Part shown: in pieces, positions 4,620 to 20,640 of the stretch
How positions within the stretch are numbered: position 1 is the first letter of the stretch
Layout of the letters: every line of letters starts with the position of its first letter
Origin: Effrenium voratum
Lineage: Eukaryota; Sar; Dinophyceae; Suessiales; Symbiodiniaceae
Direction of reading: 5' to 3'
Length of the DNA stretch: 64,000 nt
Assembly: GCA_963377175.1 (NCBI GenBank)
Contig: CAUJNA010001011.1
Span: forward strand, 1 to 64,000
Made by a program: the position numbers and the translations under genes
Notes under the pieces: generated by a model
The model's input: only the letters and a program-made list of their open reading frames with translations
Told to the model about the DNA's origin: nothing
Databases searched by the model: none

Positions 4620-4929
4620 TTATTGTTTAATTCCTGCCTTATCTTCTTCCTCCTTTGCTCTTGCTTCTGCCATTCTTTCATTTAATGGTTTTGTATCCTT
4701 GATTTTCTTGATGCTATCCTTGTATTTTTGAATTGTTTTGTCATACACCTTTTTGTCTGTAGATGTTAATGATATAATTTTCTGCCGTTGCTACATTTGA
4801 TAACTTTCTTTCAGTATAAAGTTTAATAATCTCATCAACCCTTTTTTTAGTTGCATTATTTGCGTTCTGTGTTGAATTTCTGTTGAGTTTGTTTAACTCG
4901 TTTATATTACGCTGTAAAAACTTACTCAT
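4620..4929 (-). pseudogene. Small coiled-coil viral protein, frameshifted
   Basis: ATG at 4929 opens a charged helical protein (MSKFLQRNINELNKLNRNST; RKLSNVATAENYI) whose frame ends at 4741. A shifted frame continues seamlessly (DKKVYDKTIQKYKDSIKKIK; LNERMAEARAKEEE) to a stop at 4620, which coincides with the junction to the copia remnant. So one ancestral protein of about 100 aa carries a small indel near 4,770. It has the shared promoter-like motif 31 nt upstream. Function is unknown; similar Lys/Glu-rich helical proteins are common in small dsDNA viruses of protists. Confidence 0.55.
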
Positions 4930-4960
4930 AATATAATCTATATATTTATATTATAAAATA

Positions 4961-4988
4961 TTTCTTTAAATAACTTTTTTACAAGAAA
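4961..4988 (-). promoter_or_regulatory. Putative viral promoter motif, copy 1
   Basis: On the minus strand: TTCTTGTAAAA, short spacer, TTTAAAGAAA, ending 31 nt before the ATG at 4929. The same bipartite motif precedes the genes at 6561, 7196 and 19385. Confidence 0.65.
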
Positions 4989-5029
4989 AGTTTTTATAAT
5001 AAAAATTATATATATATATATATTTTTTT

Positions 5030-5946
5030 TTAAGCTTTCAAAATTTCAAATCTTAAGAATGGTCGTGTGTTATGTTCCAAATAAAAATAAGATTGTCCTA
5101 ATTTTTTTTCAATCCTTTCAACTTTATATTTTGTAGGCAACCAATTACTACTCCTTTCCTTTTCAGTTATTGCTTTCTTTCTGTAAATCTTCACTTCGTC
5201 ACCTATGTTAATTTCAGGATATTTACGGGTTCTAGTTGCTTCGGTTGCCATTTTCATTTTTACTTTATAATTGTTTTTCTCCTTCAATGCTTCCGCTGGT
5301 GTCATTCCTATGCTTGAATGTTCCATTTTATTATTATAAGTTATTAATATTTCAAAATTATAATCTATCCATTGTATATGTTCCTTTCCTTCTTTTTCAT
5401 CTTTTTCAACCCTTTTATATAACATATCTTTGTAGGTGCGTATAAAACGTTCTGCAAAATTAGGATGTCCTCTTGTGCGGTATAATTCTATTCCTTCTTC
5501 TTTGAAATAATCTTCAACTGTTTTATTATATAAACTGCCTTCCTCGTCGCTATAAATAATTTCTGGTTTGCCTTTCATTTTCTGCATTCCTTCCATTACT
5601 CCCGCTAATATGTCAGGCGGTTGTTTTGACTTAATAGGTATTGCTGTAGAATATCTGGTAAATATATCAATTAAAACCATCCCTACTTTAAAGTTTTGAT
5701 TGGGTATGTCATTAATAAAAAATAGATCTAATTGAAATTCAAAGTATGGATGTGGAGAAATAAATGAATTTTTGCCTCTTAATTGCTTCTTCTGTTCTAT
5801 GTTCTTTTGAAACCATTCTTTAACATCATTTAAGGTTATGCTTTGTTCCTTTTGTTTAGCATCCTTATAGGTTGTTGTGATACTTCCGTATCCTGATCTA
5901 TCATAATAGGTTTTACTAATTATATCATTTTATTAATATTTGCCAT
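5030..5946 (-). CDS. Retroviral-type (rve/DDE) integrase, frameshifted near its start
   Basis: The open frame runs from 5929 to 5030 without a stop, about 300 aa. It begins with an N-terminal piece (YYDRSGYGSI; DVKEWFQKN), then the catalytic core: first Asp in FQLDLFFI, second Asp in IIYSDEEG, and Glu in PNFAERFIR. A C-terminal basic, SH3/chromo-like end follows (INIGDEVKIYRKKA; LRFEILKA). The likely start is the ATG at 5946, which reads six codons and is then thrown out of frame by an apparent one-base loss in the A-run at 5927-5930. Starting at the internal ATG at 5680 would drop the first catalytic Asp, so I reject that start. It would insert the element's DNA into the host chromosome. Polinton and PLV integrases have this layout. 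Confidence 0.85.
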
Positions 5947-5967
5947 ATTAATAAAGGTGATATTATT

Positions 5968-6561
5968 TTAAAATATTGCTTGTTGGTCAATCTTCCAGAA
6001 ATAAAATTCCTTGAAATCATCAATGCTATGTATATTACAATGTCTAAAAGGTATGATATTTACACCTAAATAATATCTTAATATTAATTTAATACTTGTT
6101 TTAACTAAATACCACGAGCGCCATTGAAGTTTGTTTTTGTTTATTTCTTCTTGAATTGTTCTACTAAACCCATTCCATACAAAATATTCTTTGTAAGCAT
6201 TCTCAATATACATTACATTATAATATTTTTTAATAATATGAAAAGTTCTTCTATTTACTAATTGCTTCAATGTTTTTAAATCATCCTTAACAAAATATTC
6301 AGGTAATAAAGATTTACTAACCATTCTTTTAAATTCTTTGATGGCGGTAGGAAATGGAAATAATTTAACCAAAATATATAATTGTTGTTGTTCAGGGTGT
6401 AGTGTTTTAAATTCATTGTCATCTAATATACTATGAAATTTACAACAGTTTTTACATTGTAAAAACTTACTTATATTGATACAATGTTCGCTTAATATTT
6501 TTTTATTGAATGTTTTAACTTTGTTCTTTTCAGTTCTACAGTCCTCACACATACTCACCAT
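5968..6561 (-). CDS. Hypothetical Cys-containing protein
   Basis: A 197-aa protein with an N-terminal group of cysteines (CEDC near residue 5, C26, and CKNCC near 36-40) that could bind zinc. The rest is Phe/Tyr/Lys-rich (LVKLFPFPTAIKEFKRMVSK) with no motif I recognise. The promoter-like motif lies 20 nt upstream, so it may be expressed in the same class as the small charged proteins. It is placed just upstream of the integrase in the same direction. Confidence 0.55.
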   Translation of the reverse strand: MVSMCEDCRTEKNKVKTFNKKILSEHCINISKFLQCKNCCKFHSILDDNEFKTLHPEQQQLYILVKLFPFPTAIKEFKRMVSKSLLPEYFVKDDLKTLKQLVNRRTFHIIKKYYNVMYIENAYKEYFVWNGFSRTIQEEINKNKLQWRSWYLVKTSIKLILRYYLGVNIIPFRHCNIHSIDDFKEFYFWKIDQQAIF

Positions 6562-6580
6562 ATAATAGTATTATAAAATA

Positions 6581-6606
6581 TTTCTTTAAATACATTTTTA
6601 CAAGAT
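6581..6606 (-). promoter_or_regulatory. Putative viral promoter motif, copy 2
   Basis: Minus strand: CTTGTAAAA, 7-8 nt spacer, TTTAAAGAAA, then an A/T-rich stretch and the ATG at 6561, 20 nt from the motif end. Confidence 0.65.
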
Positions 6607-6664
6607 ATTTTTATAGTAAAATTTCTATATATATATTTTTTTCTATAATTTTTCCTAAATTTAT

Positions 6665-6825
6665 GGTTTCAAATCCCCCGCTCTGCGGGTTTCAAATCCC
6701 CCGCTCTGTGGGTTTCAAATCCCCCGCTCTGGGGGATTCCGCTAAACACCACCTAATTTAAGGATTTTTGGACAAATCCCCCGCTCTGTGGGTTTCAAAT
6801 CCCCCGCTCTGCGGGTTTCAAAACC
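6665..6825. repeat. GC-rich 23-bp repeat island inside the AT-rich element
   Basis: Three contiguous 23-bp units (6665, 6688, 6711) consist of GGTTTCAAAT + CCCCCGCTCTGxG. A 39-nt interruption containing GGGGGATTCCGC follows, then one partial and one full unit (6773-6813) and a final GGTTTCAAAACC. Only one unit position varies (C, T or G). It fills the gap between two minus-strand genes and is the only strongly GC-rich patch in the element. Confidence 0.9.
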
Positions 6826-6914
6826 TAAAACCAAAAAAATGCACCAAATATTTAGTAAAATATATATATTTTAATAAATATTACTTAAAATATTGAAATT
6901 TTAAGACATATTAT

Positions 6915-7196
6915 TTAGTCAACTGTTCTAATTTTATATGTTTGTGCCTTATATTTTCTGGGTTTTGTATTCTGTAAATCTTCTGGTTTATTTTCATAAT
7001 CAATATCTTTTAAATTAATTTCTCCATTTTCTGCCATCTTGTCTAATTTCTTTCTTCTGTGAAATCTTATAGCACTTGCCCTTTTGGTGTCCATAAAGTC
7101 CTTTTCGTGTCTCCTTCTTTGATAATATAATCTGTTATATAGTGCCAGTTGTTCCTTTATTTGTTCCAGTGTCATATCTTCAGGTTTAATACTCAT
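6915..7196 (-). CDS. Small basic helical hypothetical protein
   Basis: A 93-aa, Lys/Arg/Glu-rich protein (TLEQIKEQLALYNRLYYQRR; RFHRRKKLDKMAENG) predicted by eye to be largely helical. No known domain was seen. The promoter-like motif precedes it by 29 nt. The gene stands alone between the 23-bp repeat island and the fibre gene. Confidence 0.55.
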   Translation of the reverse strand: MSIKPEDMTLEQIKEQLALYNRLYYQRRRHEKDFMDTKRASAIRFHRRKKLDKMAENGEINLKDIDYENKPEDLQNTKPRKYKAQTYKIRTVD

Positions 7197-7224
7197 TATA
7201 TTATATATTATATTATATTATATA

Positions 7225-7249
7225 TTTCTTTAAATACATTTTACAAGAT
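7225..7249 (-). promoter_or_regulatory. Putative viral promoter motif, copy 3
   Basis: Minus strand TCTTGTAAAA, spacer TGTA, TTTAAAGAAA, 29 nt before the ATG at 7196. Confidence 0.65.
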
Positions 7250-7256
7250 TTTTAAA

Positions 7257-9422
7257 CTAAATATTTTTATTTTTATTTTTCTTTTTAAAGACTTCGTTTT
7301 CCAAATATTCTACACGAGCAATAAGTTTTGTTAAAGCATCCCAACTAATACAGGCCATTCTGTCATAACACATTGTTAAGTATTCTCCTGTGTCATTTAC
7401 AATATTATATTTAGGATTTGTGTATTGTTGAACATCTTGAGCAATCCATCCTAATTCAGTTTTTTTAGTTTTTTGATTTTTAACAAATGTTTTAATCTTA
7501 ATGTTTTTTACCATATTTATAGTATCATCGTCTACATCTTCTATATTATCTTTCAGTCTCTTATCACTACTTAAATTAAATCCGTTATATGATGAAAATT
7601 GAGTATCATCCAATTGTAAATATTTAGTGCCATCAATATAACTATCAATAGTTGTTGATGCTTCTAATCTTAAAACAGCATCACTATTTAAATGTCTCAA
7701 ATTGATTTTATGAGCAATTCCAAAAGTCATATCGCCGTCAATAGTCCAATCGCCTCGTAATTCGCTATTACTTCCACTATTCAAAATAATTTTATTATCA
7801 GCATATGTTGCAGATAATCCAACAACCAAATTAATAGAGTTTGAAGTGTTGCTATTCCTAATTATTAAATCATTTGTATCGACATACATTTCAGCATTAT
7901 CAATTATTAGTTTTGATGTGTTGCCAAATTGAACATTGCCACTCGGTGAATTTTGTAATAATAAAGTATTTCCTGATACAGACTGAACTTGGTTGACTTC
8001 AACTTTCTTACCAGAAACCATTGTTAAATCGCCATTTGTATATACATCACCTAATACATCAACTGGCTTATTGAATATGGTTTTTGATACAGCACCGTCG
8101 CACATAAAATATTGGTTAGAAGAATTTGTAATATCGCCAATACTACAAGCAACAAAATTAGGATGATGAATATAAAAACCTTCTGTTGCCGCGGGTGTGT
8201 GTGTTTCTAAATATGGAGTTAATGCATTGTCTAAATTATCAATTTTAGTTTTAATATCTGTTGAAAAATCATTATTTGTAAATAAATTTCCTTTCATATA
8301 TGCAGCACCTTCAAAATATGATGTTCCATGTGCTTGAGCAAAATTGTATGAAGTATGAACGTTACCGTTAATCGTAATTCTTGAAGCATTATTAGGTCTT
8401 CCAACAATGACATCGCCAGTGTTCCATCCTAACCATAATCTATAAGGTGTAGCACCTGTTAGTCCTTGATAAGAGTCTAACTGACATCCTCGTTTAAACT
8501 CGAGTCTTTGGTTACTAACTGCGTCCTGGATTCTAAATATTGGATTAGTATTATCTGTTAAACTAATGATTAATGGCGAGTTCATTGTTTGGGCAGTTGT
8601 GATTGTTTTATCTAACTTTTGTAAATCTGCTGATATTAAACTATTAATCGTATTTGAATTTTGAGTTATTAATAAATCTTGTGTCGTGTTGTCTGATATA
8701 ATTGAGGCAAATGTATTACTGTATGCGGTATTTGTATTGAATAAATTAGTATCATTTGTATATAATGTTGATACATCTACATCTGCTTGAATAGTTGTTT
8801 TTTCAGTTGTAGTCCAAGAAGCACCTGCTCCTGCTTGTAAATTTGCTATATCTGTTAAAATCGTTGTTATTGTGTTTCCGTGTCCTGTTATTAGTGAAGA
8901 ATTTGAACTTATATTATTGAAGTTTGAAGTGATTGTATTATTGGAATTTCCTACTAAGAATGTATTGGAACTAATAGTATTGAAGTTTGATGTTATTGTA
9001 GCATTTAAATTACTGATTAAATGTGTATTTGAACTAATGTTATTAAAATTAGAATCAAGTTTAATTGTATTTGCTGATATAGTCGGTAGTATTGAAGTTA
9101 TGGTTAATCCCTGTGCTGTTATATTATTAAAGTTGCTTGTAATTGTTGCGTTTTGATTTACTTGTTCATTAAACATAGTTGTTGATGTTGCGTTTAATTC
9201 AGTAATATCTAAAATATTGGCATCTATCTTATTTTTCTGTGCTAAAATAAGAGCATCAACTTCTTCAATTGTATAACCTCCACCTAATGATCCTGCTGTG
9301 TCTGCTAATTCTTGTTTTGTAGCATAAACACTGCTTAATGTTGGTGGTTCTGTTGAATTTATTAATATTAATTCACTTGCTATAATTCTGTTTGATCCGT
9401 CCAGTGATAATGTTGAAAACAT
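7257..9422 (-). CDS. Fibre protein with C-terminal S74-type self-cleaving chaperone
   Basis: An intact 721-aa frame. Residues about 50-200 are a repetitive shaft built on variants of TITSNFNNISSNT. The middle (about 270-600) is Asn/Ser/Thr-rich beta-type sequence typical of trimeric fibres. The C-terminus carries the intramolecular chaperone signature of Peptidase_S74 fibres: SDKRLKDNIEDVDDDTI, then LGWIAQDVQQY, then a closing coiled coil (ALTKLIARVEYLENEV). In phage and viral homologues this domain trimerises the fibre and cuts itself off. The protein would sit on the virion surface and bind the host. It is the longest unbroken frame in the element, which argues against extensive decay. Confidence 0.85.
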   Translation of the reverse strand: MFSTLSLDGSNRIIASELILINSTEPPTLSSVYATKQELADTAGSLGGGYTIEEVDALILAQKNKIDANILDITELNATSTTMFNEQVNQNATITSNFNNITAQGLTITSILPTISANTIKLDSNFNNISSNTHLISNLNATITSNFNTISSNTFLVGNSNNTITSNFNNISSNSSLITGHGNTITTILTDIANLQAGAGASWTTTEKTTIQADVDVSTLYTNDTNLFNTNTAYSNTFASIISDNTTQDLLITQNSNTINSLISADLQKLDKTITTAQTMNSPLIISLTDNTNPIFRIQDAVSNQRLEFKRGCQLDSYQGLTGATPYRLWLGWNTGDVIVGRPNNASRITINGNVHTSYNFAQAHGTSYFEGAAYMKGNLFTNNDFSTDIKTKIDNLDNALTPYLETHTPAATEGFYIHHPNFVACSIGDITNSSNQYFMCDGAVSKTIFNKPVDVLGDVYTNGDLTMVSGKKVEVNQVQSVSGNTLLLQNSPSGNVQFGNTSKLIIDNAEMYVDTNDLIIRNSNTSNSINLVVGLSATYADNKIILNSGSNSELRGDWTIDGDMTFGIAHKINLRHLNSDAVLRLEASTTIDSYIDGTKYLQLDDTQFSSYNGFNLSSDKRLKDNIEDVDDDTINMVKNIKIKTFVKNQKTKKTELGWIAQDVQQYTNPKYNIVNDTGEYLTMCYDRMACISWDALTKLIARVEYLENEVFKKKNKNKNI

Positions 9423-9457: not shown

Positions 9458-10012
9458 TTATCTTTTCTTTCCTCTTGAGCCAAATATACCTTTATTTAAT
9501 GCATTATTTTTTTCTTGCTTCTGTCTCAAATATTCATTTTGCAATAATTGGTAATGCTGTGCTATATTGTGTAGCGGGTTTGGAGGCGGTTGCTGTTGCG
9601 ATCTTCTTGGGGGCGGTGTGTTCGCTATTATATTATTTTGTTGCGGTTGTGGTTGTTGATTTTCTTCGTTGTACGCTACTTCATGATCTATCCTTTGAGG
9701 TTTTGCTATTGGAACTGCTTTTGGTTTAGGTTTTATAGGTTTAGTTTCTAATGGTCCTTGGCAATTGCGTTCGTGCCTGTATCTGTATGATTTTAGTGTT
9801 AAAGTTTTGGCACATTTTGGACAGGTTACTTTCTTTTCATTGCGCGCTTGAGTTTTTGAGTTGTTTATAAGAGGTTCTACAGGTTGTATTTCTTGTGTTG
9901 GTTCTATTGTTGGTTCTGCATTTGGTGCTTCTTCTTCTTCAATTGGTGGTAATTCATTTACTGGTGCGTCTGCTTCAATTGTATTAGTAATTCCAGGTTC
10001 AACTTCTGACAT
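9458..10012 (-). CDS. Pro/Gln-rich protein with a single C2HC zinc finger
   Basis: A 184-aa protein: an acidic, Pro/Glu-rich N-terminus (residues 1-55), a mini zinc finger near residues 60-82 (CPKCAKTLTLKSYRYRHERNC), then a low-complexity Pro/Gln region and a basic end (FGSRGKKR). The finger is the same type as those at the ends of the GIY-YIG protein and the 16,871-17,104 protein. Role unknown; nucleic-acid or partner binding is likely. Confidence 0.65.
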   Translation of the reverse strand: MSEVEPGITNTIEADAPVNELPPIEEEEAPNAEPTIEPTQEIQPVEPLINNSKTQARNEKKVTCPKCAKTLTLKSYRYRHERNCQGPLETKPIKPKPKAVPIAKPQRIDHEVAYNEENQQPQPQQNNIIANTPPPRRSQQQPPPNPLHNIAQHYQLLQNEYLRQKQEKNNALNKGIFGSRGKKR

Positions 10013-10115: not shown

Positions 10116-10757
10116 TTAGTTAGTATCTTCTAATGTTTTTAAATATTGTAAATGGTGCTGTCTTTTTTCGTGTCTTGCTTTGCTTCCATGACTTAAAGTC
10201 TTGCCACATTCGCAGGTGTATTTGGTTAGTCGTTTGGCTCTTTTAGTTTCATAATAATTATTCTTATCCCTTTCTCTTACATATTCTAAATTGTCTTGTC
10301 TATATTGTCTTTGTTGTTCATTTATTTCATCCTTTTTGTTTTCATATCTTTCTTTATCATATTCTTTTCGTTCTTCTTTATGTTCCTCTCTGTATATTTT
10401 ACATTTAGGTAATATGGTTTCTTTATTTTCTTGGTAATACTTTTGCTTATTTCTTCCTGCTATGAACTTATTTACACATGGGTTTTCTTGTTGATGATGT
10501 CCCTCTCGTGCATCAAGTTCTTCACGATTTTTACATGGGTATTCTTCTAAAAGTTCAATTTTACAGTTGTCCACACTAAATTCATCAAACAATGAGAATA
10601 CGGTTATGTATTCAAACTCGCCCTTTAGATACAAGCGATATTTTGCCCTATGACCTTCCATTCTTTTGCTCAATGTGTTTATTGTGCTTCCTATGTAGCA
10701 TTTATTAAATCCATTATCCCATATTCTATAAATTTTACATTTTGAATAGTCTTGCAT
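10116..10757 (-). CDS. GIY-YIG endonuclease with C-terminal zinc finger
   Basis: A 213-aa protein. The N-terminal nuclease has KIYRIWDN for the GIY strand, KCYIGST for YIG, the conserved Arg in LSKRMEGH, and the metal-binding Glu in REELDAREGHH. A Lys/Glu/Gln-rich linker leads to a C-terminal finger of pattern C-x-C-G-x(8)-H-x(4)-HH (YTCECGKTLSHGSKARHE). This nuclease-finger fusion is common in large and small dsDNA viruses of protists, where it may act as a homing or recombination nuclease. A degenerate form of the promoter motif lies at about 10,791-10,812. Confidence 0.85.
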   Translation of the reverse strand: MQDYSKCKIYRIWDNGFNKCYIGSTINTLSKRMEGHRAKYRLYLKGEFEYITVFSLFDEFSVDNCKIELLEEYPCKNREELDAREGHHQQENPCVNKFIAGRNKQKYYQENKETILPKCKIYREEHKEERKEYDKERYENKKDEINEQQRQYRQDNLEYVRERDKNNYYETKRAKRLTKYTCECGKTLSHGSKARHEKRQHHLQYLKTLEDTN

Positions 10758-10815: not shown

Positions 10816-11633
10816 TTAATTGTCTAATTGAAAAAGCAAGGAGAACTGTATGGGTACGCCGTGAAAATCAATAACTTCGTCTCTTGAAGTTGTAATTTTA
10901 AAGTGTAGTCTCTTAATATTTGTACCGCCTACATCAATAAAATCTGCATATATAGGTGAGGTGTAGTCGCTAATGACTCCGCCTAGTTGTTGGTTAATTT
11001 GAACCTTTTTTATTACTGAACTACTAAAATTATTAGGTGCTGAATATTTGTAGTCGCTTAGTTGAGGTGAGTTAATATATACATTCTGAAAAGGAACTAG
11101 ATCAAAGTATCCACTTAACCAAGATGACGCAGGATCATAGGCAATATAGTTACTTAATAAATAGTTAATAGATTTTGGTCTTAAATTGTCATATTCAAAC
11201 TGTCCTCTGTTCCATTCGCCATTTACATAAGTTTCTAATTCTTCATCTGTAGGTATTTTGATTTTGTAAGTTAGAGGGTCATTCAATTTAAGTTCCATTT
11301 TGCGTTCGCTTTGTCCATATACTGTTAAGAATAAGTCAGGCACAATATCATTAAATGCCGTGTTTAATTCTGATTGTATTTTAAATGATAATTGATTGGC
11401 ATAATAAATTTCACCGGATACATCAACGGCAGTGCTTCTCAATAAGACATTGGAACTATTATACAACATAATATAAATTCGTAAAACCCTTTCTCTGTTG
11501 TATAAAACGGAGTGCTGAATGAACACTCTGTCACGAACATTTTTGTTCTTGGTGGAATTTCAAAGTTTTGGTCAAGTTCTATAAAAGTCGCTGGTAGAAT
11601 TACTTTCTGATAATCTGTAGGCACTATCAACAT
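10816..11633 (-). CDS. Minor capsid (penton-like) protein, frameshifted
   Basis: The start at 11633 gives about 50 residues (VPTDYQKVILPATFIELDQ; IPPRTKMFVTECSF). One lost base near 11,470-11,500 then shifts the frame, and the remainder runs to 10816, making about 272 aa in total. The C-terminal half has the pattern seen in PLV/polinton pentons: SSSVIKKVQINQQLGGVISD, then LHFKITTSRDEVIDFHGVPI and a final QFSLLFQL beta strand. It would occupy the capsid vertices beside the major capsid protein. The call rests on pattern memory, not alignment. Confidence 0.6.
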
Positions 11634-11706
11634 AGATTTTTTTATATGTTAATCTATCACTCATAAATATAATATACAATAGAAATTATAATATAATTAT
11701 TATTAT

Positions 11707-12471
11707 ATGATTGGACGACAATTATTATTAGGTGCTATAGAAGGCAGGACGCCGACGCAGATGATGGCAGGTGTAGCAAGTGATAAGGCGTATACGGCAG
11801 GTAAGGATTTAATAGAAGATGTATTTTTTAACCATAAAAAGAAATTGGAAGGCAAAGTAGGAGGTTTCAATAACCATTTTGATAAGCAAATAATGAAACA
11901 TAAAACACGTTATGCCGAAGAAATCAATGTTCAAAATAGAAATAAAATTGATGATGTTAAAGGTTTAGACGCTGCGTATTCAAATGTAAATGGAATAACG
12001 AGAATAGGCAACACATTATATATTGGTGGAACTGGTGCTAAAACGGGACTAAATCACAAAGTCAATGATGTAATTGCAGATTTGTTTTTTATTCCTACTC
12101 ATAATGTTCAATTAAGCGAAAGATATAAGGACGCAATGGAAGAATTAAGTAAAAATCCAGATGTGAATAGAATTGTTGGTCACAGTTTGGGCAGTTCCGT
12201 TGTTCAAGAAATCAACAACAGACATGGCAACAAATATGCTACTACTGTTTATCATCACCTTTTGTATCAGGAAGTAATCAACAGAAAAACCCGCGACACT
12301 TACGATTTAGATATCGTGGAGATCCTAGACGCGGCAATAACTGGAGAAATAGAAAGCAATAATTTATTAGATAAACACAGTTTCAATAATTGGACAGGAC
12401 AAGGTATGACTGAAATTAATCCTACTACTGATATTTCTAATGGGTTCAACCCGAATGGTAATTCGGGTTAA
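11707..12471 (+). CDS. Lipase-like alpha/beta hydrolase with an out-of-frame internal window
   Basis: A 254-aa frame. The nucleophile elbow is present as RIVGHSLGSSVVQE (GxSxG, Ser near residue 161), preceded by a lipase-3-like core (LYIGGTGAK). Frame 0 then reads poorly from about 12,250 to 12,325. In frame +2 the same bases read TCLSSP-like and RFRYRGDP text, matching the usual lipase segment with the acidic residue. Frame 0 resumes with LDAAITG and the probable His in LDKHSFNNW. So two compensating one-base indels probably mask the Asp region. Similar lipase-like proteins occur in PLVs and virophages, and may help entry or exit through membranes. Confidence 0.7.
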   Translation: MIGRQLLLGAIEGRTPTQMMAGVASDKAYTAGKDLIEDVFFNHKKKLEGKVGGFNNHFDKQIMKHKTRYAEEINVQNRNKIDDVKGLDAAYSNVNGITRIGNTLYIGGTGAKTGLNHKVNDVIADLFFIPTHNVQLSERYKDAMEELSKNPDVNRIVGHSLGSSVVQEINNRHGNKYATTVYHHLLYQEVINRKTRDTYDLDIVEILDAAITGEIESNNLLDKHSFNNWTGQGMTEINPTTDISNGFNPNGNSG

Positions 12472-12780: not shown

Positions 12781-14338
12781 ATGGATAATATAATTGCAGA
12801 AAGTGAAACTACAATGATTAACTCGTTAAATTTTGGACTTCCAGAAACAGCACAATACATCACAGACAGAAGACACGTTAATTATTTTCCATCGGGTAGT
12901 AATGTTTATAATCCAAAGCAGGAAACAAAAATATTAGATTTCATATAACAGGTGAAGACAACACATATATTGATTTATCTTCTATTCGTTTATTTGCCAA
13001 TCTTCAAAACACCGACGGAACACGAAGCCATTTTTTACGCCCGTTAAGTAATTTGTCATCCTTCTTCAGTCGTTATAGATGCACTGTAGGCGGGCAACAA
13101 GTTCAAGATATTATTGAATACAATAGGCATTTTGAATTGTATAATTCTTTTAAAAGTCAAGACGCCAGAGATATGGACGATTTAGAAGGTGGTGCTAATC
13201 CTCGTTGGGATGATGACTGGCGACATACATATGCTACTGGATTGGCAGAAATGTTAGATGTTAATACACGAGCCACTCCCCCCGAGCAACGAAAGACCAT
13301 AACAATTGGGGAGATTTAACAGCACGATATACTCGCCATTCAGTAGCAGGAATTCCCGGCGCTAATGGTTATATGAGATTAGGACATACACCAGTATGCG
13401 GACTGTTAGAAAGCAATTATTATTTGCCTCTTCGTTATGCTCCACTTGAACTGGAATTTACAATTGTATCAGACGAACATGCACCAGTTATTGCACCCTT
13501 TACTAAAACAGATGACAATGTTCATATTGATGCCAACGGTTATTATTTCACAACTGGAGACACCTCAACACTGTGGGAATTGAATAACGTAATCATTCGT
13601 GCTGAGGTAATACAATTGGGCAACACGGTTAACAATAATATAGTGAAACATTTGTTAGAAGGTCAAAGTTTAAAATTAGTATTTCCAATGTGTCACACTA
13701 TGACACAATCATTCAACGCGGCAGGAACTGAAATTAATATGAATATTGTTAAATCCGCTTCTAAATTAAATGGTTGTTTCATTACATTGTATCGCCCACC
13801 GAGAGCAGGTGCAGATGCTGATAATAATAACTACTACAGACACGATAATTATATTTATAAGAGATGGAACTATTTTTGCAACCCTATGATTAACTCCCGT
13901 ATCTTTGACGGTGCTGACCCAGATGGTGCTGGTCGTGAGCGTTTCCAAGGTAAAGGTTTTCAAGATAAAGATTTAGATTGGACTTGGCAATTACAAATTA
14001 ATAATAAGAAATATCCAGAGTTTGAATGTCAATCAATGGCAGAAACCGCATATTATTTAAAACGAACATTAAGTTATATGAACCCTGATCAAGATGCCTT
14101 TAGCATTTCCTACAAACGCTACAGAGAAGATAAATTTGTAATCGGTATATCATTTGAGAAAATGCAAGACACCAATTTCACTGGCCAGAATACGAAACAA
14201 GGAGGCTTACTCGTTTTTAAGTTGAAAGGGTCAAACAAGTCATTTACAACCGATGAAGATGTGCGCGAAATATTTGTGCATATGATTTCGGAGTCTGTTC
14301 TGGAATTGAGGGAAAGTGGATCTGTGCTCTATGATTAA
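12781..14338 (+). CDS. Major capsid protein (double-jelly-roll type), two frameshifts
   Basis: Three successive frames make one protein of about 519 aa: 12,781-12,948, then the frame of 12,936-13,319, then the frame ending at 14,338. The shifts are at about 12,935 and 13,305, each explainable by loss of one A in a short A-run. Diagnostic stretches are GLPETAQYITDRRHVNYFPS at the start, then SFFSRYRCTVGGQQVQDI, LLESNYYLPLRYAPLELEF and SIRLFANLQ. Similar segments recur in capsid proteins of PLVs and virophages. It forms the icosahedral shell. Its position beside the penton-like and lipase-like genes fits a structural block. No in-frame stop is seen apart from the two shift points. Confidence 0.75.
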
Positions 14339-14681
14339 AATGAAAATCTATGATAAATATATAATGTATACATTTCATAAACGAAATAATTTAAAAAATA
14401 AAGGTCAGATATTCTTACAATCCTCGCAAATTGAATATAGTCCATTTGATCTAAAAGATACAGAATATCTAAAACACCTACACGAACAAATGAAGTTAAG
14501 AAACTCACAAGAAGCATCGGTAGCATTAAGGAAAAAGATTGACGAAGGAAACAAGAGAGCGAACTATGTAAATGAGCTGGATAGAATGATGGGCGAATTA
14601 TATCGTCCTAACTTACCACATGCAACAAAAGAACATTTAAATAAATGGTATGAAGATACAAAAAAGTTAATATTTACTTAA
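14331..14681 (+). CDS. Hypothetical protein overlapping the capsid gene stop
   Basis: The ATG at 14331 overlaps the last codons and stop of the capsid gene (TATGATTAA). An in-frame GTG upstream at 14316 exists, but the overlap start is the simpler choice. The protein of about 116 aa is helical and charged (EYLKHLHEQMKLRNSQEASV; NELDRMMGELYRPNLP). Function unknown. The tight overlap suggests co-expression with the capsid protein. Confidence 0.5.
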   Translation: MIKMKIYDKYIMYTFHKRNNLKNKGQIFLQSSQIEYSPFDLKDTEYLKHLHEQMKLRNSQEASVALRKKIDEGNKRANYVNELDRMMGELYRPNLPHATKEHLNKWYEDTKKLIFT

Positions 14682-14692: not shown

Positions 14693-14765
14693 ATAATAAG
14701 ATTTTATACAATAAAATCTTATTATTAATAATATTTCTTCACAAAAATATTATTAATAATATTTT
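14693..14765 (+). terminator. Two AT-rich hairpins between plus-strand genes
   Basis: ATAAGATTTTAT-ACA-ATAAAATCTTAT is a perfect stem-loop at about 14,696-14,723. It is followed by ATTAATAATATTT / AAAATATTATTAAT at about 14,724-14,760. They sit between the stop at 14,681 and the ATG at 14,786, and are a likely transcript end or processing signal. Confidence 0.5.
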
Positions 14766-14785: not shown

Positions 14786-15794
14786 ATGGCAACTACAGCA
14801 AGTTTAGAATTAATAAATCCATATGCAAAATTTGGATTGAAACGACGACCTACTTATGAAGAAATCACTAATTTAATAGGCGAGAACGAACAATTAACAG
14901 GAAAACTACCAAATAGAGACGCTACATTTTTTAAAGCAAGTCCCCAAGGCAGTTTTTTTGATGGAAGCGACCGCTTAGAATTATTGAAAGACCAAGAGAT
15001 GAGAATATTAGACAGACAAATGAGAGAGGCAATGATGAAACAAGAAGCACGCAGAAACGGGCATACTTATGCAGTTCACAGAATGAACGCAGAAACACCA
15101 GTCCAAGCAAACGCTGATGCAATAAATGATGAATATGACTTTTTCCACACCGCAACAAACGGCAAGACAACACGAGGCAATGGTAGATACACAATTACAA
15201 GATATAGCAACTGCAACAAAGCGGAAAGCGGAAGAAGTAGGCAGAGCGATGGCATCAAATTTAAGAGAGATGGGCGGAACATTATTTCATAAAATGTTAT
15301 CAAACAGACAATCAGCACCAACAGAACCACGACAAGCGCCAGCAGGTAGAGCAGTAGCAGACGACCAGCAAACAATGGCATTAGAAGATGTTGAATTACC
15401 ACAGGAAGCAGTAGATGACAGTTTTTATGGATCAGCGCCACCAATTCAACAAGCGTCAGGAGCATCATCACAGCAACCACCACCATTACCATTATATCCA
15501 TTATTCAAAACAACAATAGATAATAATATTAGTCCTGCTTACTGGAAAGACAACCTTAATTTAACAGTAAATGATATTAAATTTCAATTATATTTAAGAG
15601 GAGTTCAAGTGCCAGAAGAAAGCGAAATACAAGAAGAATTGAAACACAAAGGCAGAGGCAAGGCGAGAACATACAAAGAATACTTAACAGATATGATTTT
15701 AGACACTATTGATAATGGCGGATGGATAGTAAATTTAGGCAGAAGTAGAATAGAAGAGCTCAAGGCAAGTTTTAGGGGTAAAGGAAAGAAATAA
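14786..15794 (+). CDS. Probable virion-associated protein, frameshifted
   Basis: Frame one from 14786 gives SLELINPYAKFGLKRRPTYE and a helical region (LLKDQEMRILDRQMREAMMK). At the T-run 15,139-15,143 the sensible reading moves to another frame (STPQQTARQHEAMVDTQLQD). This then continues through a Gln/Ala/Pro-rich linker to a folded-looking C-terminus (LNLTVNDIKFQLYLRGVQV; YLTDMILDTIDNGGWIVNLG) and a basic tail ending FRGKGKK. The whole is about 336 aa. No family was recognised. Position between the capsid gene and two acidic proteins suggests a structural or assembly role. Adding one T in the run would restore a single frame. Confidence 0.5.
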
Positions 15795-15810: not shown

Positions 15811-16620
15811 ATGATAATATTAACTAAAAACATACTGAAAAGAAAGAAGCAGAAGTTCAATGATAAATATGATCACGACAGTTTTACAACACATAACCTA
15901 ACAAAACCAAACACACCAACAACAATACAACCACCGAAAATGATGAAAAAGGGCATACCGAGAGAATTTATTGACATTGCAACCAACACAGATACTATTG
16001 CTACAGCAACCAGAGAGACTGACGAAAAGTTATACAATGATACAGACCAACCATTAAATGTGACATTTGAAGCGTTTAAGGTAAAGGAAAACCAAGACAA
16101 TATGTTTAAAATAATGCTTAAAAACTTTTGGCACAACACACACAAGAGAAATGAACCAACAAGAACACAAGCAACACAAACACTGAAAAACCAACGCGAC
16201 GCAATGGTGTCAGCCTTTACTAAAATGCTCGACAACAACAAACCGCCAGAACCACCGCCAAAGAAACCACCAGATGAGGATGACAGCGATGAAGAAGAAA
16301 AGAAGTTCAAACTGACAAAAATGATAGAAATAATGCTACACAACGGCGCTACAGTAGCAGATATCATATTAAACTTATCGCACAGCGCAATTGCAACAAC
16401 TATAAATATCGCAGATTTAGTCAATCAAATAACAGCAGGACATGCACAAAGTAGCAGTAGCAATTCATCAAATGAAGCTAATAGTGTTCATAGTTCTCCA
16501 CCTATTACTGTCCATAGTTCTTCATCTGAAAGTCCAACAGAAATACCAGCACCAACTGAAGACGAAGAAGAAGAAGAAGAAAACCAACATTTCAATTTTG
16601 AAAAATTAAAATCTAAATAA
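15811..16620 (+). CDS. Acidic, Thr/Pro-rich hypothetical protein
   Basis: A 269-aa protein with a basic start (KNILKRKKQKF), a Thr/Asn/Pro-rich middle, an acidic patch (PPDEDDSDEEEKKFK), a possible hydrophobic helix (NGATVADIILNLSHSAIATT) and a Ser- and Glu-rich end. It lies 16 nt after the preceding gene. No domain was recognised. Confidence 0.5.
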   Translation: MIILTKNILKRKKQKFNDKYDHDSFTTHNLTKPNTPTTIQPPKMMKKGIPREFIDIATNTDTIATATRETDEKLYNDTDQPLNVTFEAFKVKENQDNMFKIMLKNFWHNTHKRNEPTRTQATQTLKNQRDAMVSAFTKMLDNNKPPEPPPKKPPDEDDSDEEEKKFKLTKMIEIMLHNGATVADIILNLSHSAIATTINIADLVNQITAGHAQSSSSNSSNEANSVHSSPPITVHSSSSESPTEIPAPTEDEEEEEENQHFNFEKLKSK

Positions 16621-16841: not shown

Positions 16842-16877
16842 ATTAATAATATTAACATATAATAATATTATTAATTG
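16842..16877. terminator. AT-rich hairpin between convergent genes
   Basis: AATTAATAATATTA-ACATA-TAATAATATTATTAATT forms a long stem exactly where the plus-strand gene ending at 16,841 meets the minus-strand gene ending at 16,871. It is a good candidate bidirectional transcript end. Confidence 0.55.
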
Positions 16878-17104
16878 CTATCATAGTCTGTCATTTTATC
16901 CTCTGGTATTGTTGTTGAAGTAGTACTACTTATATCATCTATTAAATCTTCTTCATCAACAAAATTATTTTGAAATCTTAATAATTCCTCGTCTGTTGGT
17001 CGTCTTTTTAACACTTTATAAAGTTTATGTATCCAAGAATTAGTATGAAAATTATAATTACCTCTACGATAAAATCCACCACATCTACATAGTTTCATTG
17101 ACAT
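16871..17104 (-). CDS. Small protein with a C2H2-type mini zinc finger
   Basis: A 77-aa protein with an N-terminal finger, CRCGGFYRRGNYNFHTNSWIH (C-x-C-x(11)-H-x(5)-H). A linker and an acidic, Ser/Thr-rich tail follow. Its finger resembles those of the two other zinc-finger proteins in the element. It is transcribed just downstream of the packaging ATPase gene, 30 nt away. Confidence 0.6.
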   Translation of the reverse strand: MSMKLCRCGGFYRRGNYNFHTNSWIHKLYKVLKRRPTDEELLRFQNNFVDEEDLIDDISSTTSTTIPEDKMTDYDSN

Positions 17105-17134
17105 ATTATTATATTATATTAAATTAGAATATCT

Positions 17135-17899
17135 TTATTCATCATTCGTAATTTGAAACGCCTGTTCAAATCTGATATGAAACATTTTGTTAATGTCTTT
17201 AGCATTCATATTCACGTAGAAGAAACTATAAGGTGCGTCATTAACGGCTTGATGATACATATCTAATAATTGCTGTTTATCAACAATGGCGCTATTTTCT
17301 TCAATAAAACTCATTAACTCACTTGCATTTTTCAACCTAAAAATATATAATGAACTGGCATTTAAACGAATGATAGGCGCTAAAACATTATATTTTTGTG
17401 TTGAACAAATCACACTTACTGCATCGTGCCTGCCTCTTGTAAATAATCCATGTAATAATTTACTATATCTAACAAATTTAGGATCATCGGCATGATCGTC
17501 TATAACGATTAGTATTGAATGCAGTTTCTTTATCTTTTTAGATTTCATATAATTAATTATTTTCTTCTGTCTTTCAATTACATTTTCTAAATCACTTGGA
17601 TTATAATTATCAAAATATATTTGTTCTTTTTCATCATCTACGTGCAATTCATCCCTGATGTATTTTTTAACTTCTGTAAAAGTTGGGTCATTATGAACAC
17701 TGGGGGAAAATATAGATATTCTTGCAAATGAATTTCTATAAACATTTAAAATCAGATTCTGGACTAAAACTGCTTTGCCTCCCGTCGAACTCGCAACTAT
17801 AATACTTCTAAATGGTAATTTTGGCACGTGCTCATATTTGGATTGTTTGAATTCATATTCAGTTATGTTTATTGGTTTTATTATTGGGACATCTGTCAT
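17135..17899 (-). CDS. A32/FtsK-HerA-like DNA-packaging ATPase with altered Walker A
   Basis: A 254-aa protein of the size and layout of viral genome-packaging ATPases. Walker A is ASSTGGKAVLVQN (Lys42, Ala43) and Walker B is SILIVIDDHADD (Asp134-Asp135). A later segment, VSVICSTQKYNVLAPIIRLN, contains the usual sensor Gln/Arg-type motif. Ala43 replaces the Thr/Ser that normally binds Mg-nucleotide (codon GCA, 17,771-17,773), so hydrolysis may be lost. The frame is otherwise intact. It would pump DNA into the capsid. Confidence 0.85.
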   Translation of the reverse strand: MTDVPIIKPINITEYEFKQSKYEHVPKLPFRSIIVASSTGGKAVLVQNLILNVYRNSFARISIFSPSVHNDPTFTEVKKYIRDELHVDDEKEQIYFDNYNPSDLENVIERQKKIINYMKSKKIKKLHSILIVIDDHADDPKFVRYSKLLHGLFTRGRHDAVSVICSTQKYNVLAPIIRLNASSLYIFRLKNASELMSFIEENSAIVDKQQLLDMYHQAVNDAPYSFFYVNMNAKDINKMFHIRFEQAFQITNDE

Positions 17900-17959
17900 A
17901 GTTGATATTAAAGAAATATAGAAAATTATATTTAAGAATTAACTTGTAATTATTATTAA

Positions 17960-18160
17960 ATGGAACATCATTATGTTATGAGTGGCGGTGAATAACATAA
18001 TGGAACAGGTTTCCATTGCTTCAATCAATAAGCATTGAAGATAATTAGTTTTGTGTCTTGCTCGCGTGTGCAATGAAAGCCCCAAGTGCTGTGCCCCACC
18101 AATATTCTATTATGCATGAAATAATAAGATTAATTAGAATAATTTATCTTATTATTTAAT
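17960..18160. other. Gene-free stretch with hairpin; possible decayed small frame
   Basis: No intact frame. Broken plus-strand text (HNGTGFHCF; ARVCNESPKCCAPP) hints at a decayed Cys-containing protein but jumps frames. A clean hairpin, AAATAATAAGAT ... ATCTTATTATTT, lies at 18,119-18,157. Confidence 0.35.
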
Positions 18161-18164
18161 ATGG

Positions 18165-18340
18165 ATATTCAGATTATATTGATATAATAGATGAAGTAGA
18201 ATATCGAACAAGTAATAATAACTGACAATAAAATTAAGAAATGCTGTTATTGTACATTAGAATTAATAAAATTAGGAATACAATATATCAAAAATAAAAA
18301 TGTAAATATTAATATAAATGGGAAAAAAGAAAAAGAGTAA
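18165..18340 (+). pseudogene. Possible frameshifted small Cys protein
   Basis: Two overlapping frames read YSDYIDIIDEVE and then EQVIITDNKIKKCCYCTLEL as if one short protein with a one-base shift. Its end overlaps the start of the next gene. No start codon can be assigned with confidence. Confidence 0.25.
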
Positions 18341-18650
18341 ATCAAATTCAATATTAGATAATGAAAGACCAATGCCAGATATTGAAGCTCGGAAAGAAAC
18401 AACAGTAAGTGTTAAATCATTAGGTGTGTGTAAAGAAATAAAATGTGATAAATGTAATCATATTATGAACTTTCAAAATGAATTAATAGTAGATAAAAAA
18501 GGCGGTGTTAATATTAAATGTATTCCGTGTATGTTATCAGTCAAGAGGAAAGACCAAGAAATGAGTGTAGTGAAGAAGAAGGACGGAGATATGACAATAG
18601 AAACAAATGACAATTTAGTCAATGTTAGTTTTAATAGGGTAATAACATAG
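18318..18650 (+). CDS. Small Cys4 zinc-ribbon-like protein
   Basis: A 110-aa protein with a basic N-terminus (MGKKKKSKSNS) and two CxxC pairs: CDKCNHIMNF and CIPCMLSVKR, about 28 residues apart. This suggests a zinc ribbon. The remainder is charged. It could act in viral transcription, but no family is recognised. Confidence 0.55.
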   Translation: MGKKKKSKSNSILDNERPMPDIEARKETTVSVKSLGVCKEIKCDKCNHIMNFQNELIVDKKGGVNIKCIPCMLSVKRKDQEMSVVKKKDGDMTIETNDNLVNVSFNRVIT

Positions 18651-18737
18651 TATTTAAAGAGTAGATTTTACATTGAATCAATTTTATAAATATATATATA
18701 TTTAAATAAATAATTATTTAAATAAATATACATAGAA

Positions 18738-19076
18738 ATGTCTGAAGTTGAGAATGATACTATTGCTGAACTATCAAAGAAGGTAATGACAGTTAGTAAA
18801 AATGTTAAACTGTTGTACGAGATGATAAAAACTATTGACCAGAAACTTGATGCAAAGGCAAACGAACCAAAAAATAACAATGAAGAGAAGGAAAAGATTG
18901 ATAAGATCTTTGAAAAGAAAGGGATAGGCAGACCCAGCGGTGATTATGACACGAAGCGTAAAAAATATTGTGATATGTTAAATAAGGGACAAATCAAAAG
19001 TCCAAAAGAACAAACATTAGAATATTATAAACTAATTAAGGGCGATGATGGTAAATATGTAATTGTTGAAAATTAA
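18738..19076 (+). CDS. Coiled-coil protein with GRPSG-type basic motif
   Basis: 112 aa: an N-terminal coiled coil (ELSKKVMTVSKNVKLLYEMI), an Asn/Lys/Glu linker, then GIGRPSGDYDTKRKKYCDML and a short folded end (EYYKLIKGDDGKYVIVE). The GRPSG plus basic stretch resembles small DNA-binding hooks. Comparable proteins occur in other small protist viruses, but I cannot name the family. Confidence 0.55.
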   Translation: MSEVENDTIAELSKKVMTVSKNVKLLYEMIKTIDQKLDAKANEPKNNNEEKEKIDKIFEKKGIGRPSGDYDTKRKKYCDMLNKGQIKSPKEQTLEYYKLIKGDDGKYVIVEN

Positions 19077-19097
19077 AATACAAATAGTTCTAATAAT

Positions 19098-19199
19098 ATG
19101 AATTTATTAGAATTATTTTCAGGCAGTGGTTCTGTTTGTAAAATTGCACGGGATTTAAGTTTTAATGATGATAATCCAATTTTAGCAATTATAATTTAA
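19098..19199 (+). pseudogene. N-terminal stub of a C5 cytosine DNA methyltransferase
   Basis: Thirty-three codons reading MNLLELFSGSGSVCKIARDL, which is motif I of cytosine-5 methyltransferases (the AdoMet-binding FxGxG loop). The frame then runs into AT-rich low-complexity sequence and stops at 19,199. Motifs IV, VI and VIII-X are absent. It is therefore a truncated remnant, too short to be active. Confidence 0.7.
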
Positions 19200-19335
19200 T
19201 TATGATAATTTAATTATAATTTTAATTTATTAATTTAATTTTAATTTATTAATTTTTTATTTTATTAATTTAATTTTATTTTATTAATTTAATTTTAATT
19301 TATTAATTTAATTTTAATTTATTAATTTAATTTCT
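19200..19335. repeat. AT low-complexity repeat
   Basis: Irregular tandem copies of TTTAATTTATTAATTTAATT-like sequence directly follow the methyltransferase stub, suggesting expansion or deletion at this site. Confidence 0.8.
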
Positions 19336-19356
19336 TGTAAAAAGTGCTTAAAGAAA
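19333..19356 (+). promoter_or_regulatory. Putative viral promoter motif, copy 4
   Basis: Plus strand TCTTGTAAAA, spacer AGTGC, TTAAAGAAA, 29 nt before the ATG at 19385. Same layout as the three minus-strand copies. Confidence 0.65.
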
Positions 19357-19384
19357 TATTAATTATATATATATTATCATACAA

Positions 19385-19825
19385 ATGGTTGTATTTACAG
19401 AGGTTGAACAGGAAGAAATTATCAATGAATTCTTAACTTATATTGAACAACAGGAAACTAAAATAATTGATGATTTTTTGAGTGATAATGATAATAAAAC
19501 AGAAGAAGAAGAAGAAGAAGAAGATGAAAAGGAAGTTACAGAACATCATAAAATGATAAACAAAATTGAAACGAAAAAATACATCCCATTAAAACATGCA
19601 ATGATAAAATATATGGAACAAACCAACAACCAACGAATAATTAGAAATGCTGGAAACTATTCATACAGTCAAAAGACATCCAATTGGTGGTATTTAAGCT
19701 TTAGAGAATGGTTAATCGAAATAAAAAAGAATGGTAACAAATGGATTTGTAGCAAAGAAAAATTAGATGCAGTTGATTTTAACATATTGTATAAATATAA
19801 AATGTTTGGAAGAAGATTTGAATAA
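19385..19825 (+). CDS. Acidic hypothetical protein
   Basis: 146 aa: a Glu/Asp-rich first half (DNDNKTEEEEEEEDEKEV) and a folded-looking second half (NWWYLSFREWLIEIKKNGNK) ending in basic residues. It has the shared promoter-like motif and is the last gene before the right flank. Function unknown. Confidence 0.5.
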   Translation: MVVFTEVEQEEIINEFLTYIEQQETKIIDDFLSDNDNKTEEEEEEEDEKEVTEHHKMINKIETKKYIPLKHAMIKYMEQTNNQRIIRNAGNYSYSQKTSNWWYLSFREWLIEIKKNGNKWICSKEKLDAVDFNILYKYKMFGRRFE

Positions 19826-19839
19826 TTATAAAAAAAAAC

Positions 19840-20150
19840 GAATGAACATAACCTTGCCCATAATATTTCTACAAAATTTGTGATAAAATTTATTGTAAAA
19901 TAGTTTATCATAATTTTTGGAATAATATTATGGAAAATTTTGTAAATTTATATTTTGTAAAATTATATTTTGTTTTAAAAAATATATTTATTGATTTTTT
20001 TTAAAAAACATGATTTTTGTAATTTTTTTTTGAAAATCTATTGTTTAAAATTTATTTTTTAAAATATATTTTTTAAAATTTATTTTTTAAAGTTTATTTT
20101 TTTTGAAAATTTATATTTTTTGAAAATGAATGAACTTAACCTTGCCCATA
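19840..20150. repeat. Two copies of an AACCTTGCCCAT-containing 23-mer in the right AT-rich flank
   Basis: GAATGAACxTAACCTTGCCC-type sequence lies at 19,840-19,862 and 20,128-20,150, 288 bp apart within gene-free A/T-rich DNA. The core matches the 21-bp tandem array at 2,656-2,730. Confidence 0.6.
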
Positions 20151-20159
20151 TATATTTTT

Positions 20160-20640
20160 GAAAATTTTGAATATAAAATATTGGATAAACTGACTAGGAA
20201 ATTACCTGCTTTGAAATGTTGATTTTTGAAAATGTGCTTCTTGAGGTGCTGTTTTAAAATGTTGCTAAAAGTGTAGGGAGGACCCTAGGATTTTTTATAG
20301 AAAAAAGATGGGCAAGGTCTGGTCTAACTAGGAATGCGTTCTTTTTCAAGTATCCTTCCACTCCGACTTTGACAGGCTTTGGAAACTACGTTGACCTGCA
20401 AGGCAAGTTCTTTTGTTTTCTAGAGGCTCAATTTCCATGATGCAACACTTGCGTTCCGGAGAGGCGCTTCCGAAGGGGCCGTTCGAGCCCCCGCAGTACA
20501 AGAAGACTGGGCGAGGACATTTGCTCTTCTCGGCAGCCACATTTCTTTTTTTGCACCGCGACAGGACCTTGAGCCGTCAGGTAGCTGCAAGCACGACTGG
20601 GTCGGGAACAAGTTCGAGCAGTGAAAAAGTCTGCGACCAG
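20160..20640. other. Transition from AT-rich element to GC-rich host DNA
   Basis: A/T-rich sequence gives way to GC-rich sequence between about 20,170 and 20,350. Short frames occur on the minus strand (CGGSNGPFGSASPERK), but no domain or context supports a gene. No copy of a left-end inverted repeat was found. Confidence 0.4.

What the first reader, a model, noticed from the sequence alone, without database searches (positions are those of the whole stretch)
4620..20330. AT-rich integrated polinton-like virus / virophage-type element inside a GC-rich dinoflagellate-like chromosome
The block carries a capsid-building set (major capsid, penton-like, packaging ATPase, fibre), an integrase and accessory genes, with base composition utterly unlike its surroundings. 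The 721-aa fibre, the ATPase and the GIY-YIG gene are unbroken, so integration looks recent. Integrated small dsDNA viruses are known in protists as a class. This particular gene set, with no polymerase or protease found, may be a new lineage.
Basis: partly seen in the sequence, partly recalled or inferred. Interest (0 to 1): 0.88.

Follow-up and report, generated by a model that had tools for sequence, protein, structure and literature searches.

The report
Decaying integrated virus in dinoflagellate-like DNA
This stretch is the damaged remains of a small DNA virus inserted into what looks like a dinoflagellate chromosome; the kind is already known, but the layout of its gene switches hints that such viruses may be run by a giant virus.

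Summary
Window ~4,621-20,340 is an AT-rich block (20-39% GC inside, 50-66% outside) with a coherent polinton-like virus (PLV) gene set: A32-type packaging ATPase, double jelly-roll capsid protein (fold predicted on a full-length ~90% relative), penton-like protein, S74-tipped fibre, rve-type integrase, GIY-YIG, hydrolase and zinc-finger proteins. Eight of 19 ORFs match one viral contig. ATPases at 98% and capsid proteins at 90-93% lie in long contigs elsewhere, so this belongs to a multi-copy endogenous family, consistent with the published 'Dino' group; a new lineage is not supported. This copy is damaged: capsid, penton, integrase and leftmost genes are frame-broken, Walker A has Ala where 24 of 24 compared relatives have Thr/Ser, and a gene is cut at the left edge, so the missing polymerase is more likely truncation. 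Recency is not excluded (98% ATPase). New here: a long motif before four ORFs of unknown function, TCTA 19-24 nt before capsid, penton, ATPase and two other ORFs, and strong intergenic hairpins. These resemble published virophage/giant-virus signals; the TCTA evidence is moderate and post hoc. New member of a known kind.

The parts
4621..20340 (.). AT-rich endogenous PLV; a gene is cut at its left edge
   Evidence: GC step at both ends
4621..4929 (-). start of an unidentified gene, one frame change, runs off the block at ~4,620
   Evidence: no credible Pfam hit (38), no viral contigs relative (39)
5030..5946 (-). rve-type integrase; the ATG found at 5946 is in another frame than the homologous body
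   Evidence: 35% to L001 integrase, E 1e-39; rve below cut-off
5968..6561 (-). unknown ORF, 197 aa, preceded by the long motif
6665..6822 (.). two short arrays of a 23-nt G+C-rich unit containing a palindrome
6915..7196 (-). unknown ORF, 93 aa, preceded by the long motif
7257..9422 (-). fibre-like protein, 721 aa, C-terminal Peptidase_S74 chaperone
   Evidence: 2e-10; S74 domain matches L001 fibre (1.5e-4)
9458..10012 (-). zinc-finger-like protein (CxxC...HxxxxC, my reading), homologue in L001
   Evidence: 1.5e-6
10116..10757 (-). GIY-YIG endonuclease-like
   Evidence: 35% to L001 protein, E 9e-28, which hits GIY-YIG 3e-7
10816..11664 (-). penton-like (minor capsid) protein; N-terminal part frame-broken
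   Evidence: 30% to L001 ORF, E 2e-19; penton name by position and recalled resemblance, fold not predicted
11707..12471 (+). alpha/beta-hydrolase (lipase-like) with GHSLG motif
   Evidence: 29% to L001 ORF, E 6e-13; that ORF hits esterase/hydrolase families only below cut-off
12781..14338 (+). major capsid protein in three frames (two frame changes)
   Evidence: fold of full-length relative
14316..14681 (+). small ORF downstream of MCP (start uncertain; 14373 used)
14786..15292 (+). unknown ORF, weak match to L001 ORFs, TCTA at -21
   Evidence: (0.002)
15126..15794 (+). unknown ORF overlapping the previous one
15811..16620 (+). unknown ORF, 269 aa
16871..17104 (-). small ORF, TCTA at -24
17135..17899 (-). 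A32-type packaging ATPase; residue 43 in Walker A is Ala (21 T and 3 S in 24 compared relatives)
18318..18650 (+). unknown small ORF
18738..19076 (+). unknown small ORF
19098..19199 (+). 33-aa ORF resembling the start of a DNA methyltransferase (ELFSGSGS; recalled motif)
19385..19825 (+). unknown ORF, 146 aa, preceded by the long motif
19826..20340 (.). very AT-rich non-coding right end
4958..4986 (-). long motif TCTTGTAAAA-n(5-7)-TTAAAGAAATAT, 57 nt before the ATG at 4929
6578..6605 (-). long motif, 44 nt before the ATG at 6561
7222..7248 (-). long motif, 52 nt before the ATG at 7196
19333..19359 (+). long motif, 52 nt before the ATG at 19385
14720..14761 (.). example of the 9 hairpins with stem 14 or more (others start at 6847, 9416, 16841, 18119, 18693, 19082, 19187, 19949)

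Best explanation
A damaged endogenous PLV, probably truncated at its left end, belonging to a multi-copy family in dinoflagellate genomes (most likely the published Dino group). Full-length members would work like proviruses: the rve-type integrase inserts the genome; on activation the genome replicates (by a polymerase absent from this copy), double jelly-roll capsomers, pentons and S74-matured fibres assemble a virion, and the A32-type ATPase packages DNA. Shown here: the gene set, homology, the predicted capsid fold of a relative, the frame breaks, the gene cut at the left edge. Inferred: integration mechanism, truncation, virion formation by full-length relatives, host identity, Dino membership. 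My most likely reading of its control, at much lower confidence (0.33, not included in the confidence below), is virophage-like: virion genes carry TCTA at -19 to -24 as in Mavirus/CroV late genes, other genes carry a second long motif, and spacers carry hairpins as at Sputnik/Mimivirus gene ends, so that a giant virus's transcription machinery would switch full-length members on.
For: Eight of 19 window ORFs match one 17.4-kb viral contig by blastp, E 1.5e-4 to 2e-90, the fibre only over its S74 domain. ATPase 98% (P0121, cluster of 261 sequences, contig of 748 kb); MCP 93% (P0241) and 90% (P0253, cluster of 217). MCP tree: window with 45 others at 100/100, nearest P0253. Predicted fold of P0253: PBCV-1 Vp54 E 1e-18, Sputnik 3e-14, mavirus 9e-12. 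Breaks; Walker A. Long motif: 4 hits in the window, 0 in 300 dinucleotide shuffles. Hairpins: 9 intergenic with stem 14 or more against shuffle mean 0.15, max 2 of 60; 1 in 48 kb of flanks. TCTA: 5 of 17 genes at -19 to -24, reached in 9 of 1000 shuffles. Precedents: passages of PMC8547959 and PMC6723459.
Against: For identity: the integrase profile hits are below cut-off; no terminal repeats or duplication; no named Dino-group reference was compared; one listed ATPase relative bears the label of an alphaproteobacterial MAG (P0240; I take it for contamination). For decay: frame breaks could partly be sequencing errors. For the control reading: the long motif was defined from the sites it describes, so its shuffle control is lenient; TCTA was picked by eye and recall, any C- or G-containing tetramer does as well in 284 of 1000 shuffles, and AAGT also reached 5; four ORFs (12534, 14316, 15126, the 19098 fragment) were left out of the 17; the relative L001 has no long motif, no hairpin of stem 14 or more and no TCTA cluster at -19 to -24 in 14 genes; fibre, zinc-finger, GIY-YIG and hydrolase genes lack TCTA within 50 nt; 3'-end specificity of the hairpins was not separated from intergenic position; the long motif had only 2 exact matches in the viral collection, both inside ORFs of contigs that look like phages to me.
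Confidence: 0.85

Rival explanations
1. A functional integration of a new PLV lineage that naturally lacks a DNA polymerase and protease and relies on host or helper replication.
For: No PolB match in the first 22 kb of the window (tblastn with the L001 ORF, E up to 0.1); fibre, ATPase and GIY-YIG frames are open; ATPase 98% to P0121.
Against: Four genes frame-broken, Walker A residue changed, a gene cut by the left edge; close relatives abundant; a paper speaks of pPolB in dinoflagellate polintons (passage, PMC12721341).
Confidence: 0.07
2. Assembly artefact: a free virus contig misjoined to host DNA.
For: No terminal repeats or target-site duplication; the left edge joins a copia-like relic (family name recalled, no Pfam hit) whose other half was not found on the right by blastn.
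Against: The same family sits in many other long contigs; genes are decayed; a paper reports 2,535 MCP copies in Polarella glacialis (passage of PMC10120064).
Confidence: 0.06
3. Rival to the control reading only: the promoter-like motifs and hairpins are by-products of AT-rich repeats or element-specific DNA structure, not giant-virus signals, and the family does not depend on a helper.
For: A hairpin also lies in a divergent spacer (18,119); TCTA is not significant against all tetramers; L001 lacks the signals.
Against: The long motif precedes an ATG by 44-57 nt in 4 of 4 cases; hairpins far exceed per-spacer shuffles; TCTA falls on MCP, penton and ATPase.
Confidence: 0.5

Closest known systems
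Dino-group PLVs / dinoflagellate polintons (PMC10120064; PMC12721341)
   Same: Endogenous, multi-copy, capsid, ATPase and often an rve integrase; published insertions are generally 15-30 kb and sometimes differ in GC from the host
   Different: This copy is broken and lacks a recognisable polymerase; group membership inferred, not tested with reference sequences
IMGVR_UViG_3300028392_002905 (L001)
   Same: Homologues of integrase, ATPase (51%), MCP (29%), penton, GIY-YIG, hydrolase, zinc finger and the S74 fibre domain
   Different: Has a 1286-aa ORF with polymerase-like motifs (recalled; no Pfam polymerase hit), different gene order, no long motif, no hairpin of stem 14 or more
Oxyrrhis marina PLV (OmPLV, PMC12721341)
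   Same: Low-GC endogenous PLV in a dinoflagellate, fragmented copies, A32 ATPase, GIY-YIG, often near Ty1/copia elements
   Different: Tyrosine recombinase and no rve integrase detected; helicase-PolB fusion; MCP does not branch with the Dino polintons, per that paper
Mavirus / Sputnik virophages
   Same: Double jelly-roll capsid; TCTA late-promoter motif (Mavirus) and gene-end hairpins (Sputnik), as reported in PMC8547959 and PMC6723459
   Different: MCP matches them by fold only; no protease recognised; helper dependence untested

Membership tests
Polinton-like virus (endogenous) | double jelly-roll major capsid protein | tested here: met
   on P0253 (90-91% to the window piece); the window gene itself is frame-broken
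Polinton-like virus (endogenous) | A32/FtsK-type packaging ATPase | tested here: met
   Pox_A32 4e-9; Walker A altered in this copy
Polinton-like virus (endogenous) | minor capsid (penton) protein | tested here: inconclusive
   homologue of an L001 ORF that I take for the minor capsid protein by recalled resemblance; fold not predicted (A5 job not accepted)
Polinton/Maverick | rve integrase | tested here: met
   1e-39 to the L001 integrase, which passes Pfam rve (6e-8); the window protein itself is below cut-off and its start is broken
Polinton/Maverick | protein-primed PolB | tested here: not met
   no match in the first 22 kb; a gene is cut at the left edge, so absence says little about the lineage
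Polinton/Maverick | terminal inverted repeats and target-site duplication | tested here: not met
Dino group of Bellas et al. 2023 | MCP clusters with dinoflagellate EVE MCPs | tested here: inconclusive
   groups with MCPs mostly from unnamed ENA contigs; one named eukaryotic relative (ATPase, Skav208340)
Virophage (Maveriviricetes) | virophage-type MCP by sequence | tested here: not met
   no virophage chain among solved structures by sequence at E up to 1; Sputnik and mavirus only by fold
Virophage (Maveriviricetes) | dependence on a giant virus | not testable with these tools
   only indirect motif evidence

The most novel reading that the evidence does not exclude
The family carries a two-class promoter code (a long motif on genes of unknown, probably non-virion, function; TCTA at -19 to -24 on capsid, penton and ATPase) plus hairpin terminators, i.e. 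the regulatory grammar of a virophage, meaning that the many endogenous PLVs of dinoflagellates are a provirophage-like reserve switched on by an unknown mimivirus-like giant virus of dinoflagellates.
Probability: 0.33. Interest if true: 0.75.

Novelty: new member of a known kind. Interest (0 to 1): 0.42.

Why it matters
The element itself adds one damaged copy to a published class. The regulatory signals, if they hold in full-length copies, would give a direct test of a question the passages read here leave open: whether dinoflagellate PLVs depend on giant viruses, and on which ones.

Tried and rejected
Window genome: the genome search did not complete (17 calls), so copy number in the host, homologous copies of the junctions and motif conservation are untested. 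Viral-contig scans with ATPase, MCP and the left gene found only one contig, held as L001 and, reversed, as L002, or nothing; two scans of prokaryote contigs found nothing. Rfam: 0 matches in 4,500-20,500. ARAGORN: 0 genes in the window. Terminal repeats: only AT-rich matches of 12 nt or less. The idea that the element cleanly interrupted the copia-like relic was dropped because blastn did not find its other half in the right flank. The idea that the left gene is the start of PolB could not be tested. The long motif in a giant virus: not found. MCP profile against solved-structure sequences: nothing credible. PDB search with the L001 1286-aa ORF and with the fibre: no hits. Paper search for TCTA + late promoter + mavirus: 0 papers.
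Full report
What is there. The window holds a 15.7-kb AT-rich block (about 4,621-20,340) in DNA whose ORFs include reverse transcriptases (RVT_1, 1.5e-10 and, just below cut-off, 1.9e-6) and an RNase H (9e-6). The left flank carries a relic that I read as copia-like from recalled motifs; Pfam gave no hit for it. Inside the block are a packaging ATPase (Pox_A32, 4e-9), a fibre with an S74 chaperone (2e-10) and an rve-type integrase (below the curated cut-offs, but 1e-39 to the L001 integrase, which passes Pfam's rve cut-off). One viral contig, L001 (17.4 kb), matches eight of 19 window ORFs given to blastp at E 1.5e-4 or better: ATPase 51% (2e-90), integrase 35%, MCP C-part 29%, GIY-YIG 35%, penton 30%, hydrolase 29%, zinc finger 33%, fibre S74 domain 34%; a ninth, ORF 14786, matches at 0.002.

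Capsid. The 321-aa MCP piece finds 410 proteins, of which 120 are listed. In the first 27 rows (83-93% identity, coverage 89% or more), 14 clusters are 498 aa or longer and hold 399 of the 427 member sequences; the other 13 clusters are 290-410 aa. So full-length versions are common in the database, shortened ones exist too, and this copy is broken. The model of the full-length relative P0253 (65-row alignment; pLDDT 77, pTM 0.81) matches PBCV-1 Vp54 (E 1e-18), iridovirus MCP, Sputnik (3e-14), faustovirus and mavirus (9e-12) structures; the top rows have rmsd near 10 A and TM-scores near 0.5, so the fold class is clear but not the exact relative. The MCP tree used 64 proteins of the 240 listed, chosen by me, plus the window piece; the window falls in a group of 46 rows (100/100; all others but one of ENA origin) away from 19 metagenome MCPs including that of L001. 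The program warned that the two groups meet on long branches, so the split says they differ, not how they are rooted.

State of this copy. The MCP is spread over three frames (12784-12936, 12933-13169 and 13349-14335 in frames 1, 3 and 2). The penton's N-terminal part has two stops in the homologous frame and family-like sequence in another. The integrase body is open from 5926, but the ATG found is in another frame. The leftmost gene changes frame and runs out at ~4,620. ATPase residue 43, in Walker A, is Ala against T in 21 and S in 3 of the 24 relatives aligned (23 chosen from the 120 listed, plus L001); residue 62 is Ser against F or Y in all 24. I infer that this copy cannot make virions by itself; sequencing error for some frame breaks is not excluded. 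Against great age, its ATPase is 98% identical to P0121, with an end branch of 0.007, so recent arrival or spread remains possible.

Polymerase. None found. The L001 ORF of 1286 aa carries what I recall as PolB motifs, but Pfam and PDB searches did not name it a polymerase. [quoted passage not shown] Since a gene is cut at the left edge, truncation is the simpler account.

Host and family. The closest ATPase cluster (98%, 261 sequences) has a contig of 748 kb. Among the 120 rows listed (of 457) only two bear an informative name: Skav208340 from EukProt, which I recall as a Symbiodinium kawagutii gene prefix, and P0240, labelled an alphaproteobacterial MAG, which I take for contamination. PMC10120064 (passages, sections 6 and 9) reports 2,535 MCPs in Polarella glacialis and a separate Dino MCP group; PMC12721341 (outline with abstract, first part of Results, passages) names dinoflagellate polintons and describes fragmented OmPLVs; PMC7805220 (passages) reports six MCP genes in Symbiodinium microadriaticum, thought to be degraded elements; PMC11071213 (passages) reports Maverick elements in Breviolum enriched in 5-hmU and around dinoTAD boundaries; PMC13037468 (passages) reports PLV contigs in Karenia brevis metagenomes. 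The class is therefore known.

Regulatory signals, new here. (i) TCTTGTAAAA-(3-9)-TTAAAGAAATAT occurs four times in the window, all in the element, starting 44-57 nt before an ATG (4929-, 6561-, 7196-, 19385+); 0 in 300 dinucleotide shuffles, 0 in L001. The motif was drawn from these sites, so the control is lenient; a looser form with up to 6 mismatches gave 12 hits in the element against a shuffle mean of 3.15 and none in 20,501-64,000. (ii) TCTA starts 19-24 nt before the ATG of penton, MCP, ORF 14786, ORF 16871 and ATPase, 5 of 17 genes examined (ORFs 12534, 14316, 15126 and the 19098 fragment were not examined); none of the four genes in (i) has it within 60 nt. For TCTA alone 9 of 1000 shuffles do as well; for any tetramer containing C or G, 284 of 1000, and AAGT scored the same. 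The case rests on the prior that TCTA is the Mavirus/CroV late motif (passage of PMC8547959). In 14 L001 genes there is no such cluster. (iii) Intergenic hairpins: 11 with stem 12 or more against shuffle mean 1.3 (max 4 of 60), 9 with stem 14 or more against 0.15 (max 2); L001 has 3 and 0; 48 kb of flanks hold 4 and 1. By the rule, 7 of these 9 lie within 120 nt 3' of a stop codon, but most spacer DNA does. Sputnik genes end in Mimivirus-type hairpins (passage of PMC6723459). Two searches for hairpin signals in PLVs listed 15 of 18 and 12 of 668 papers; no listed title or start of abstract reports them for dinoflagellate PLVs. For hairpins I looked inside only PMC6723459; PMC8547959 and PMC10945749 were looked at for promoter terms.

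Verdict. A damaged endogenous PLV, new member of a known kind; the control signals are the part worth following.

Noticed in passing
58611-61280: 889-codon open frame in the right flank with a weak RNA 2'-phosphotransferase (Tpt1/KptA, PF01885) match, E 7e-5, under the Pfam cut-off.
   Followed up: no
54283-55239: ORF with an AAA_30 domain match (1.8e-6) in the right flank.
   Followed up: no
43692-48570: Row of ORFs in one direction with RVT_1 (1.5e-10) and RNase_H (9e-6): looks like a broken non-LTR retrotransposon; a second RVT_1 at 32481-34001 on the minus strand.
   Followed up: partly
21147-21306, 24113-24228 and 36533-36566: The same 9-bp unit (CCGTATGAT) in short arrays; in the first two places arrays stand in opposite orientations as inverted repeats.
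   Followed up: no
20838-21028: 25-bp tandem array (7.6 copies) about 500 bp right of the viral edge.
   Followed up: no
6665-6822: Two short arrays of a 23-nt unit containing CCCGCTCTGCGGG, a G+C-rich palindrome in very AT-rich viral DNA.
   Followed up: no
17960-18110: Less AT-rich non-coding patch in the divergent spacer between ATPase and ORF 18318, with a hairpin; no Rfam match.
   Followed up: partly
L001:2232-6092: 1286-aa ORF with polymerase-like motifs (recalled) that no Pfam polymerase model names.
   Followed up: no
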